Shown one piece after another: positions 18,834 to 20,844 of a DNA stretch of 34,487 nt. Under the pieces are notes generated by a model. That model was not told the origin of the DNA and did no database searches. It saw only the letters and a list, made by a program, of their open reading frames with translations. The position numbers and the translations under genes are program-made. Every line of letters starts with the position of its first letter. Within the stretch, counting starts at the first letter, position 1. Source of the DNA: Chloroflexota bacterium (GTDB lineage Bacteria; Chloroflexota; Dehalococcoidia; Bin125); contig JAPPJZ010000031.1 in assembly GCA_028874365.1 (NCBI GenBank), forward strand, positions 9,596 through 44,082. The letters run 5' to 3'.

Positions 18834-18909
18834 TGCCCGGTAGCTCAATTGGTAGAGCGGGCGGCTGTTAACCGCTAGGTTGCGGGTTCAAGTCCTGCCC
18901 GGGCAGCCA
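18834..18909 (+). tRNA. tRNA-Asn(GTT)
   Basis: The acceptor TGCCCGG (18834-18840) pairs with CCGGGCA (18899-18905). The anticodon loop CTGTTAA gives GTT, the T-arm carries GGTTCAAGTCC, the discriminator is G, and CCA is encoded at 18907-18909. The next gene, on the opposite strand, ends one base beyond the CCA, so the tRNA 3' end forms the left edge of the accessory cassette. Confidence 0.96.
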
Positions 18910-18910
18910 T

Positions 18911-19624
18911 CTATCCGCCAGTAGTCCGAAGATATGGACGGTCCAGCGCCCGCTGGTTCAAGCGCCTGCCGCGTTCTGTCACTGGCAGTGCGTTCATTAG
19001 GCCCGCGTCTACCGCCCGGCCCAGAAGCTTGACAAAGGGGCGATTCAAGGGCTGCTTGCGCGCCGTAGGGCTTACCGCCAATTCAGCCAATATCCGCGCC
19101 AATTGCACTTTGTTCAAGTTACCGCCAGTGCGAGCCGCAAACAGCTTCGCGATGTCCTTCTCTCGCCAATTGTCCCTAACGTCCCGCATTTCTGCTCTGG
19201 AGAACGCGTATTGCTCATTGCACGCCAATGTCAGCGCCCTCGCCAAATCGCTGTCGCTAAAGTTGTCGAACTCAAAAGTCTTCTTCCACACCTTCACTCT
19301 CTCCGGCGCTATAACCCTCCGCCTCAAACCGGACAACGACTTCTTAGTCTTCGACGAATCCTTCAGTCTACTTGCTCCTCCTTCGTTGTCGAGCACGACA
19401 AACACGACAACTTGGTGATCCTGAAGGTAGTCTACTAACCGGAATATCGCGTTGTATCTGTCTTCCCTGCTGTTGCCGGTAGCATTTCCTATTCCTCTTA
19501 GATTTACAAGTTCAATGCTGCCAGTTCCGTATTCAAACCCAAACAACAAGGGAAACAGACGACTGATGAACTCTACTTCGCTTTGTCCTTCCAACATAAG
19601 TACGACCTTCGGTTGGGGATTCAC
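18911..19624 (-). CDS. TOPRIM-domain protein, OLD/DUF4435-like
   Basis: A 237-aa protein starting at GTG. The N-terminal TOPRIM-like domain shows the acidic motif LMLEGQSEVEF (Glu12) and a second motif VVVFVVLDNEGG (Asp79 and Glu81), matching the E...DxD pattern of OLD-family nucleases and related TOPRIM proteins; FEFDNFSDSDLARAL further on also fits that group. The C-terminal third is helical and basic. Metal-dependent nuclease activity is inferred from the motifs and not shown. It lies 18 bases after the 327-aa gene, so the two are co-transcribed. Unlike PARIS or Gabija, no ATPase gene is adjacent. The codons are less GC-biased than in its neighbours. Confidence 0.7.
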   Translation of the reverse strand: MNPQPKVVLMLEGQSEVEFISRLFPLLFGFEYGTGSIELVNLRGIGNATGNSREDRYNAIFRLVDYLQDHQVVVFVVLDNEGGASRLKDSSKTKKSLSGLRRRVIAPERVKVWKKTFEFDNFSDSDLARALTLACNEQYAFSRAEMRDVRDNWREKDIAKLFAARTGGNLNKVQLARILAELAVSPTARKQPLNRPFVKLLGRAVDAGLMNALPVTERGRRLNQRALDRPYLRTTGG

Positions 19625-19642
19625 ATCATACTGATTCGCTAC

Positions 19643-20626
19643 CTATTCCAAATGGAGCCTTGGGTCCTGCTGTACCTTCGCTTCAGGCACAGAGTCCAAT
19701 CGGATTCCCAATGCCTTGTCGACCGATTCGACGTCATCTTCGTACAAATCTTCGAACAGGCTGCGGAAGAGCCCTGCCATTTGCCGAAACAGTTGAGCGC
19801 GTAGTGCATCGCCCCTCAGTTGAGCTCTCTTCCGATGGGACACGAACTGAACCATGTTTGACCAATCAAACAACGGATCGCAATCCTGCCGTGCCCACCT
19901 CAACCCTCTATGCGCCCTCATCAGTGAGTCCTGTGTCACGCCGAATCGTTCCGCCACCTTCTCAGAGTCCCAGTTCTCTCGATATTGGTACCAGTCCCAC
20001 GAATCACTATCATAAGCCAGCACTCCTCCATACCAGCTCGACTGTGGTAGATGGATAGTTCGCCTGTTGCTGAGTGTACTCGGCAGGTATGCGTTGGAAA
20101 TGTACTGTGCTAATGCAGCTTCCGCCCTCCGCTTCGACGACCGCTCTTGCAACCTCTTTTCGGTCCATTCGAGAACCCTCTCCATGTGCTCTTCCCAGGA
20201 TGGGTCTACTGCGTCCGGTTCCAGATGCCAGTCCAGCTCAATCTCGTAGTTCAGTCGGCGCAGAACGTCGTCCAAATCCCACACTTGGAATGCGGAATAG
20301 AGAGGCACTACCCGATTGTCCTCGATCTCCGGAACCGAATACTCTGTGAACGGAGAGTAGGACTCGATTATCCACTGATCCCAAAAGGAGTTTGGAGCAG
20401 GCAGACCGTCCAAGTAGATTGAACCATTACCATCCGCCCCTCGATCTATCCGAACTAGGGGACGAAAGGCTCTCAGTACCTCCAACCGATGAAGGCGCTC
20501 TCTGGTTACACGAAGGTTACGCTCCGTACAGTAGCGCACGAAGTCGTCAGCCGACAGAAGGCCGCGCATTCTCACGGCTGCTTCGTCGAGTATCAAACGG
20601 GCCGGGTAGCGTGGAAGGGTTACCAC
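19643..20626 (-). CDS. Unknown 327-aa partner of the TOPRIM protein
   Basis: Not recognised. It starts at GTG with AAGGTG seven bases ahead. Residues 24-60 look like a small helix-turn-helix (SADDFVRYCTERNLRVTRERL then LRPLVRI-like FRPLVRID), and residues 220-240 (SEKVAERFGVTQDSL) resemble a second one. The middle is rich in Trp, Tyr and acidic residues (ELDWHLEPDA, DSDSWDWYQY) and residues 145-170 form a charged helix. There are no membrane segments or signal peptide. It is the upstream gene of a two-gene operon with the TOPRIM protein, so a sensor or adaptor role is plausible. Base composition matches its partner and not the flanking chromosome. Confidence 0.7.
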   Translation of the reverse strand: MVTLPRYPARLILDEAAVRMRGLLSADDFVRYCTERNLRVTRERLHRLEVLRAFRPLVRIDRGADGNGSIYLDGLPAPNSFWDQWIIESYSPFTEYSVPEIEDNRVVPLYSAFQVWDLDDVLRRLNYEIELDWHLEPDAVDPSWEEHMERVLEWTEKRLQERSSKRRAEAALAQYISNAYLPSTLSNRRTIHLPQSSWYGGVLAYDSDSWDWYQYRENWDSEKVAERFGVTQDSLMRAHRGLRWARQDCDPLFDWSNMVQFVSHRKRAQLRGDALRAQLFRQMAGLFRSLFEDLYEDDVESVDKALGIRLDSVPEAKVQQDPRLHLE

Positions 20627-20669
20627 TGTTAGGCACCTTACCCTTCGACATCGCGGGTTTGCAGAGACT

Positions 20670-20743
20670 TGGCTGCCGAGCCAGGATTCGAACCTGAACT
20701 GAGGGATCCAAAGTCCCTAGTGCTACCGTTACACTACTCGGCA
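20670..20743 (-). tRNA. tRNA-Gln(TTG)
   Basis: Minus strand. The acceptor TGCCGAG (20743-20737) pairs with CTCGGCA (20680-20674). The anticodon loop CTTTGGA gives TTG, the T-arm reads GGTTCGAATCC, the discriminator is G and CCA is encoded at 20672-20670. It lies 14 bases after tRNA-Leu on the same strand and its 3' end forms the right edge of the accessory cassette. Confidence 0.96.
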
Positions 20744-20757
20744 AGTGGAGATGAGCT

Positions 20758-20844
20758 TGGTACCGAGGGCCGGACTCGAACCGGCACGGGCTTTACGCCC
20801 AATGGTTTTTGAGACCATCGCGTCTACCATTCCGCCACCTCGGC
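20758..20844 (-). tRNA. tRNA-Leu(CAA)
   Basis: Minus strand with the long variable arm expected of tRNA-Leu. The acceptor GCCGAGG (20844-20838) pairs with CCTCGGT (first pair G-U). The anticodon loop CTCAAAA gives CAA, the variable stem is GGGC/GCCC, the T-arm GGTTCGAGTCC, discriminator A and CCA encoded at 20760-20758. It begins 17 bases after the CNNM gene on the same strand, so the two tRNAs could be processed from a shared transcript. Confidence 0.95.

What the first reader, a model, noticed from the sequence alone, without database searches (positions are those of the whole stretch)
18910..20669. Two-gene TOPRIM cassette inserted between facing tRNAs: candidate undescribed defence module
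Seen: two adjacent minus-strand genes with lower GC than both flanks, bounded by the 3' ends of tRNA-Asn and tRNA-Gln, with an OLD/DUF4435-like TOPRIM protein and an unrecognised 327-aa protein with helix-turn-helix-like stretches. Known: TOPRIM nucleases of this type act in PARIS, Gabija and OLD systems, normally together with an ATPase. Here no ATPase is present. Inference: a sensor or adaptor plus TOPRIM effector working without an ATPase would be a new arrangement.
Basis: partly seen in the sequence, partly recalled or inferred. Interest (0 to 1): 0.68.

Follow-up and report, generated by a model that had tools for sequence, protein, structure and literature searches.

The report
Broken single-gene TOPRIM nuclease at tRNAs
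The supposed two-gene cassette is one gene cut in two by a stop codon; intact copies elsewhere in bacteria and archaea encode a single unnamed protein that looks like an anti-virus nuclease without the usual ATPase partner, and in this bacterium it sits in a gene-swapping hotspot between two tRNA genes.

Summary
The sequence features are real: facing tRNA-Asn and tRNA-Gln, and between them 1,760 bp of lower-GC DNA that differs in every relative. The two-gene reading is wrong. The 327-aa ORF and the TOPRIM ORF lie in one reading frame, separated by a single in-frame TAG. At least 14 relatives encode both parts as one uninterrupted protein of about 515-690 aa, in Chloroflexota, Acidimicrobiaceae, Nitrospirota and Methanophagales archaea. 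The N-terminal part belongs to no known family and has no known fold. The C-terminal part folds like the OLD/GajA TOPRIM-plus-helical domain and keeps its catalytic residues. No P-loop is present. Relatives lie beside Type I R-M, Type IIG, AbiE, HKD-Snf2 and Hma genes, and the tree shows transfer between phyla. Best reading: a mobile, single-protein, ATPase-free, OLD-like TOPRIM nuclease with its own sensor-like N-domain, probably an anti-phage effector. The window copy is interrupted and probably inactive; two related copies are also remnants. ATPase-free TOPRIM effectors have a precedent (retron Eco2), and sensor-NTD-TOPRIM fusions were noted in 2013, so this is an uncharacterised new variant of a known kind. 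The tRNA interval is an integrase-free cargo hotspot, often with hicAB.

The parts
18910..20669 (.). Lineage-specific insert exactly between the 3' ends of tRNA-Asn and tRNA-Gln (variable in every genus member)
   Evidence: blastn to 12 genus members stops at 18909-18911 and resumes at 20668-20670; interval lengths 198-3166 bp elsewhere
18911..20626 (-). One gene (N-domain + OLD-like TOPRIM), interrupted by an in-frame TAG at 19643-19645
   Evidence: same frame in both halves; single ORF in relatives; the genome search reports '1 TAG' inside
19643..20626 (-).
   Evidence: no Pfam/PADLOC/NCBIfam match
20453..20560 (-). Conserved helix-turn-helix-like segment (DDFVRYCTERNLRVTRERLHRLEVLRAFRPLVR)
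   Evidence: conserved in the family; predicted as two helices and a strand; HTH assignment is inference
19643..19645 (-). In-frame TAG stop that splits the gene; position not conserved in relatives
   Evidence: TAG is a normal stop in this genome
18911..19624 (-).
18989..19627 (-). OLD-like TOPRIM + helical nuclease domain; catalytic E346 (19589-19591), E350 (19577-19579), D413 (19388-19390), E415 (19382-19384), E452 (19271-19273), K506 (19109-19111), numbered on the full frame
   Evidence: fold match to 6nk8 Z 12.9; residues invariant in 9/9 aligned proteins; equivalents in Bp OLD from PMC6755086
18834..18909 (+). tRNA-Asn(GTT), left border of the hotspot
   Evidence: conserved in 12 genus members
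20670..20743 (-). tRNA-Gln(TTG), right border; the inserted gene starts 43 bp downstream in the same direction
20758..20844 (-). tRNA-Leu(CAA), next to tRNA-Gln

Best explanation
The locus is one horizontally acquired gene inserted at a tRNA-bounded hotspot. It encodes a single protein: an N-terminal, mostly helical domain with an HTH-like segment, followed by an OLD-type TOPRIM-plus-helical nuclease domain, with no ATPase. In intact relatives the N-domain most likely senses or binds an infection signal (nucleic acid, or a phage or defence protein) and unleashes two-metal nucleic-acid cleavage by the TOPRIM domain, acting as an anti-phage, probably abortive, effector that often backs up R-M-type systems. 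In the window genome the gene is interrupted by an in-frame TAG, so this copy is probably inactive. Shown: single frame, fused relatives, TOPRIM fold and catalytic residues, no P-loop, patchy and transferred distribution, defence neighbours. Inferred: nuclease activity, its substrate, the sensing role, the defence function, inactivity of the window copy.
For: One frame with one TAG and an uninterrupted conserved linker. Single ORF in intact relatives. TOPRIM: PF20469 over cut-off in three relatives; fold match Z 12.9 to 6nk8 (174 residues, rmsd 3.9), about 10 to GajA, 7.8 to PARIS AriB, 6.5 to retron Eco2. E349/E353/D416/E418/E455/K509 (G218 numbering) invariant in 9/9, matching Bp OLD E400/E404/D455/D457/E508/K562 with the same E-to-K spacing of 54. 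No Walker A or ABC signature. Defence neighbours: Type I HsdM/S/R directly upstream (L073), AbiEi/AbiEii (L025), HKD+Snf2 helicase (L030), Hma operon (between a DUF1156 methyltransferase and HmaC, L065), DrmMI/Type IIG-like protein beside a remnant (L074); matched PADLOC scan 114 families against 16. Transfer: G218 copy groups with the Acidimicrobiaceae copy (65% identity, 99/98 support) apart from the same-genus window copy (41%). Copies in G319 and G062 are remnants with the N part lost.
Against: No direct functional evidence. The N-domain model is only moderate (pLDDT 65) and matches nothing, so the sensing role is a guess. The PADLOC comparison counts families, not genes, and rests on simple ORF calls. 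Nitrospirota copies sit in cobalamin gene clusters and some neighbourhoods show no defence gene. A distant subfamily (G253, G069, G060) lacks the lysine and in part the second acidic residue of the D-x-E pair. Window invariant residues are slightly less kept in the N part (27/32) than in most relatives.
Confidence: 0.66

Rival explanations
1. Two separate genes: the stop is a fixed, functional split, and a sensor/adaptor protein and a TOPRIM effector are made separately and form a complex.
For: The downstream part has a possible GTG start and stays open for 237 codons; catalytic residues are kept; PARIS shows that OLD-type proteins can split into two genes.
Against: No other copy is split at this point; intact relatives across three bacterial phyla and an archaeal lineage are fused. 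The GTG is an internal codon of the conserved linker with no well-placed ribosome site. The other TOPRIM-only copies are N-terminally truncated remnants.
Confidence: 0.08
2. The TAG is a consensus or assembly error, or a minority-strain base, and the gene is intact in the living organism.
For: The genome is a draft in 82 contigs, probably a metagenome-assembled genome; the rest of the frame is undamaged and the window branch in the tree is not unusually long.
Against: Single-base errors are rare in assembled consensus (general knowledge); remnant copies in G319 and G062 show that this gene does decay.
Confidence: 0.14
3. The TAG is read through or recoded, so a full-length protein is made at a low level.
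For: The frame continues with full conservation after the stop.
Against: TAG ends 7 of 17 clear genes in the window; no recoding signal was found or tested.
Confidence: 0.03
4. The family is not defence but DNA repair, RNA maturation (RNase M5-like) or a mobile-element function.
For: TOPRIM also occurs in RNase M5, RecR and primases; Nitrospirota copies lie in cobalamin gene clusters.
Against: Patchy: 11 of 400 phylum genomes, 4 of 393 class genomes. Transferred between phyla. Closest fold is OLD/GajA rather than RNase M5 (Z 12.9 and 10 against 5.7). In operon with Type I R-M and Hma. No match in phage or plasmid collections.
Confidence: 0.22

Closest known systems
OLD family nucleases, Classes 1-3 (P2 Old, GajA of Gabija, retron Eco8 effector)
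   Same: C-terminal TOPRIM plus helical domain, same fold and same metal-binding/lysine layout
   Different: OLD proteins have an N-terminal ABC ATPase; here a helical/HTH-like N-domain with no P-loop takes its place; D-x-E instead of D-x-D
PARIS (AriA ATPase + AriB TOPRIM tRNase)
   Same: TOPRIM effector with separable regulator; structural match to AriB Z about 7.8
   Different: No AriA-like ATPase; regulator-like domain fused in the same protein; no DUF4435 profile match
Retron Eco2 (RT-TOPRIM fusion)
   Same: Single protein, TOPRIM effector without an ATPase, regulatory N-terminal part
   Different: N part is not a reverse transcriptase; no retron features found
HEPN/Toprim-NTD1 fusions (described in PMC3710099, 2013)
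   Same: Sensor-like N-terminal domain fused to a TOPRIM (or HEPN or Mrr) effector in one protein
   Different: That NTD is about 240 aa, alpha+beta; this one is about 335 aa, mostly helical, and Pfam reported no N-domain match
tRNA-bounded integration hotspots of bacterial genomes
   Same: Conserved tRNA borders, variable low-GC cargo, empty sites in relatives, tRNA 3' repeats in some
   Different: Very small integrase-free cargo (0.9-3.2 kb) between two facing tRNA 3' ends, often with hicAB

Membership tests
OLD family nuclease | C-terminal TOPRIM/helical nuclease domain with E, E, DxD, E, K | tested here: met
   Fold Z 12.9 to 6nk8; residues invariant in 9/9, with D-x-E for D-x-D; PF20469 over threshold in three relatives
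OLD family nuclease | N-terminal (or partner) ABC ATPase | tested here: not met
   No Pfam ATPase match, no Walker A or ABC signature in any member, no other gene in the 1,760-bp insert
PARIS | AriA ATPase gene with a DUF4435 AriB | tested here: not met
   No PADLOC Ari match for either part or for relatives; no DUF4435 in Pfam
Gabija | GajA (ATPase+TOPRIM) followed by GajB helicase | tested here: not met
   Only a weak GajA match over 39 TOPRIM residues (E 0.0053); no GajB recognised beside the gene
Retron Eco2-type RT-TOPRIM | Reverse transcriptase domain fused to TOPRIM | tested here: not met
   No RT family match and no YADD motif
HEPN/Toprim-NTD1 protein | HEPN/Toprim-NTD1 N-terminal domain | tested here: inconclusive
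   Pfam scans of the window copy and relatives gave no N-domain match; fold of the N-domain unresolved
Wadjet JetD | DUF3322/DUF2220 TOPRIM with JetABC | tested here: not met
   No such Pfam or PADLOC match; no SMC operon recognised in the neighbourhoods looked at
Anti-phage defence gene | Located in defence islands more often than other genes | tested here: met
   Neighbours: Type I R-M, AbiE, Hma, HKD+Snf2, Type IIG against generic ATPases in matched control regions; count is of families, small sample
Anti-phage defence gene | Protects against phage | not testable with these tools
   needs a bench assay
tRNA integration hotspot | Conserved flanks with replaced content and empty sites | tested here: met
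tRNA integration hotspot | Direct repeat of the tRNA 3' end bounding the window insert | tested here: not met
   No repeat above shuffles in the window; present in G406, G218, G410, G402
tRNA integration hotspot | Integrase in the insert | tested here: not met
   No integrase-like gene recognised among the insert ORFs

The most novel reading that the evidence does not exclude
A previously unnamed family, spread over at least three bacterial phyla and Methanophagales archaea, of single-protein immune nucleases in which a new kind of sensor domain (HTH-like plus helical bundle) replaces the ABC ATPase that controls OLD-type TOPRIM effectors, recruited as a backup effector into Type I R-M and Hma operons.
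Probability: 0.45. Interest if true: 0.6.

Novelty: new variant of a known kind. Interest (0 to 1): 0.4.

Why it matters
The finding as written (a two-gene, ATPase-free system) falls away. What remains is an uncharacterised, easily testable single-gene TOPRIM family that travels between phyla and sits in restriction operons. It would ask how an OLD-type nuclease is held in check without its ATPase, which bears on how PARIS, Gabija and retron effectors are gated. It also shows how a premature stop can look like a new two-gene system, a caution for gene-pair based discovery of defence systems.

Tried and rejected
Protein pattern scan of genome contigs with the 327-aa part alone found nothing; the alignment-based scan worked. 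Scans of viral contigs and tblastn against phages and plasmids found no relative, so no phage or plasmid carrier was identified. PHROGs, NCBIfam and PDB sequence search gave no usable match. The weak HNHc_6, WapI, Nitroreductase and UBA_RAD5A Pfam hits are sub-threshold and were set aside. Fold search with the N-domain alone gave only common helical arrangements (best Z 6.2). The G085 hit (L031) shares only the HTH-like segment and lacks the TOPRIM residues, so it was excluded from the family. Promoter scan is near chance. Rfam found only the tRNAs. Recoding of TAG was rejected because TAG ends many genes here.

Full report
What is there. ARAGORN finds tRNA-Asn(GTT) at 18834-18909 (+), tRNA-Gln(TTG) at 20670-20743 (-) and tRNA-Leu(CAA) at 20758-20844 (-). 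Between the two facing 3' ends lie 1,760 bp with GC 0.535 against about 0.68 in the left flank. Two minus-strand ORFs fill it: 19643-20626 (327 aa) and 18911-19624 (237 aa, TOPRIM).

One gene, not two. The two ORFs are in the same reading frame, separated by a single TAG at 19643-19645. The frame continues from the stop through VANQYDVNPQPK into the TOPRIM domain. In G218 (same genus) the aligned stretch lies inside one uninterrupted 573-aa protein. Profile searches over the phylum and a scan of GTDB genomes found the same fused protein in G218, G597, G016, G354, G159, G253, G069 (two copies) and G060, an Acidimicrobiaceae MAG (L065), two Nitrospirota MAGs (L068, L070) and two Methanophagales archaea (L069, L072); a contig-edge Nitrospiria copy (L071) is partial. 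None is split at this point. The genome search itself reports the window copy as one match with '1 TAG' inside. TAG is an ordinary stop here: it ends 7 of 17 clear genes in the window. The residue under the stop is not conserved in relatives.

State of the window copy. Apart from the stop, the gene looks undamaged: all six catalytic positions are kept, as are 27 of 32 N-part and 27 of 30 C-part positions invariant in the other eight aligned proteins, and its tree branch is not unusually long. So the stop is either recent or an assembly error. Decay of this gene elsewhere is visible: G319 (same genus) and G062 keep the TOPRIM half with the N part lost. The inference that the window copy is inactive is likely but not shown.

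What the protein is. Pfam's OLD-like TOPRIM (PF20469) is weak for the window copy (16.6 bits, cut-off 23.2) but above cut-off for the G218, G597 and G253 copies (24.3, 28.0, 23.3). AlphaFold2 on the intact G218 protein with eight relatives gave mean pLDDT 69.6. Residues 337-553 match the C-terminal region of OLD nucleases at Z 12.3-12.9 (6nk8: 174 residues, rmsd 3.9), GajA at about 10, PARIS AriB at 7.8 and retron Eco2 at 6.5, with the OLD/GajA group well above the unrelated rows (Foldseek best E 6.6e-3, probability 1.0). E349, E353, D416, E418, E455 and K509 (G218 numbering) are invariant in nine aligned proteins. They correspond in order and spacing to E400, E404, D455, D457, E508 and K562 of Bp OLD, where they hold two metals and the catalytic lysine (PMC6755086); the E-to-K spacing is 54 in both. 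The N-terminal part of about 335 residues starts with an HTH-like segment followed by helices. It matches no Pfam, PADLOC, NCBIfam or PHROGs family and no known fold, although its own model is only moderate (pLDDT 65). No member has a Walker A or ABC signature.

Where it travels. It is patchy: 3 of 15 genus members including the window genome and the G319 remnant, 4 of 393 class genomes, 11 of 400 phylum genomes (one of these, G085, shares only the HTH-like segment). The G218 copy is 65% identical to the Acidimicrobiaceae copy and groups with it at 99/98 support, but only 41% identical to the window copy of its own genus, while a housekeeping protein beside the tRNA site is 83% identical between these two genus members. 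That indicates horizontal transfer. It is not tied to tRNA sites: no tRNA was found within the flanks fetched around the other copies. One taxonomic caution: the record behind G016 (L073) is titled 'Proteobacteria bacterium', whereas the genome search lists it in the window's phylum.

Defence context. In L073 the gene follows HsdM, HsdS and HsdR of a Type I system, overlapping the end of HsdR. In L065 it lies between a DUF1156 methyltransferase and HmaC of an Hma system. L025 has AbiEi and AbiEii, L030 an HKD+Snf2 helicase, and the remnant in L074 lies near a DrmMI/Type IIG-like protein. As a control, 55 neighbours from ten loci matched 114 PADLOC families at E <= 1e-15, headed by Type IIG, Type I specificity and restriction subunits, AbiE and HKD+Snf2. 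Fifty-five proteins from other regions of the same genomes matched 16, mostly HerA and other generic ATPase models. This counts families rather than genes, but the difference in kind is clear. The Nitrospirota copies sit in cobalamin gene clusters, so the association is not universal.

Mechanism. Most likely the N-domain keeps the TOPRIM nuclease silent and releases it on an infection cue, giving metal-dependent cleavage of DNA or tRNA. The nuclease chemistry is inferred from fold and residues; sensing, substrate and outcome are inference. Lack of an ATPase is not a bar: the C-terminal region of Bp OLD is active alone (PMC6755086), and retron Eco2 uses a TOPRIM fused to a reverse transcriptase (PMC12405507). 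Auxiliary or backup TOPRIM/OLD nucleases beside BREX-type operons have been catalogued (PMC12839542), and an N-terminal domain shared by HEPN and TOPRIM effectors was described in 2013 (PMC3710099). This family therefore fits a known theme but was not found described in the papers searched.

The site. In 12 genus members with the region assembled, the flanks (an RNase D-like gene with tRNA-Asn on one side, tRNA-Gln, tRNA-Leu and a CorC-like gene on the other; gene names by recall from sequence) are conserved, and alignments stop at the tRNA 3' ends. The content between is 198-3,166 bp and differs: two near-empty sites (G400, G401), DUF3800 genes, an unknown 165-aa protein, ImmA/IrrE with DUF4411 and a methyltransferase-HNH protein, or small membrane-like proteins, at GC 0.54-0.56 in the occupied sites and without an integrase recognised. 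Several carry hicAB next to tRNA-Asn. In G218, G402 and G410 a copy of the tRNA-Asn 3' part follows hicAB, and in G406 it follows a hicB-like gene, far above shuffles. The window insert has no such repeat. The gene in the window is therefore cargo of a real hotspot.

Verdict. The window copy itself is an interrupted gene.

Noticed in passing
window 18909-20670; L075-L087: The interval between facing tRNA-Asn and tRNA-Gln is a cargo hotspot in the genus: near-empty (about 200 bp) in G400 and G401, otherwise 0.9-3.2 kb of differing low-GC cargo (DUF3800, ImmA/IrrE + DUF4411 + methyltransferase-HNH, an unknown 165-aa family) with no integrase recognised.
   Followed up: partly
L084, L077, L076 (G218, G402, G410), first about 560 bp of the interval; G406 in L080: A roughly 500-bp hicAB toxin-antitoxin unit sits right after tRNA-Asn and is followed by a 26-52 bp copy of the tRNA-Asn 3' part (88-97% identity); in G406 a hicB-like gene is followed by a 51-bp copy at 100%. 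It looks like a minimal tRNA-bounded TA unit.
   Followed up: partly
L031:7948-9585 (-): A 546-aa protein of G085 shares the N-terminal HTH-like segment but not the TOPRIM; the segment may be a module reused in front of other domains.
   Followed up: no
L068 and L070, around the TOPRIM gene: In two Nitrospirota genomes the family gene sits in a cobalamin gene cluster, directly upstream of what looks like a cob(I)alamin adenosyltransferase gene, which does not look like a defence island.
   Followed up: no
L027-L030 (G253, G069 two copies, G060): A distant subfamily keeps the TOPRIM glutamates and aspartate but lacks the conserved lysine, and three of the four lack the second acidic residue of D-x-E.
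   Followed up: no
G319 and G405, CorC-like gene beside the tRNAs (L046, L047): the genome search reports one TGA inside the match of this otherwise conserved gene in two genus members; the position of the stop was not checked.
   Followed up: no
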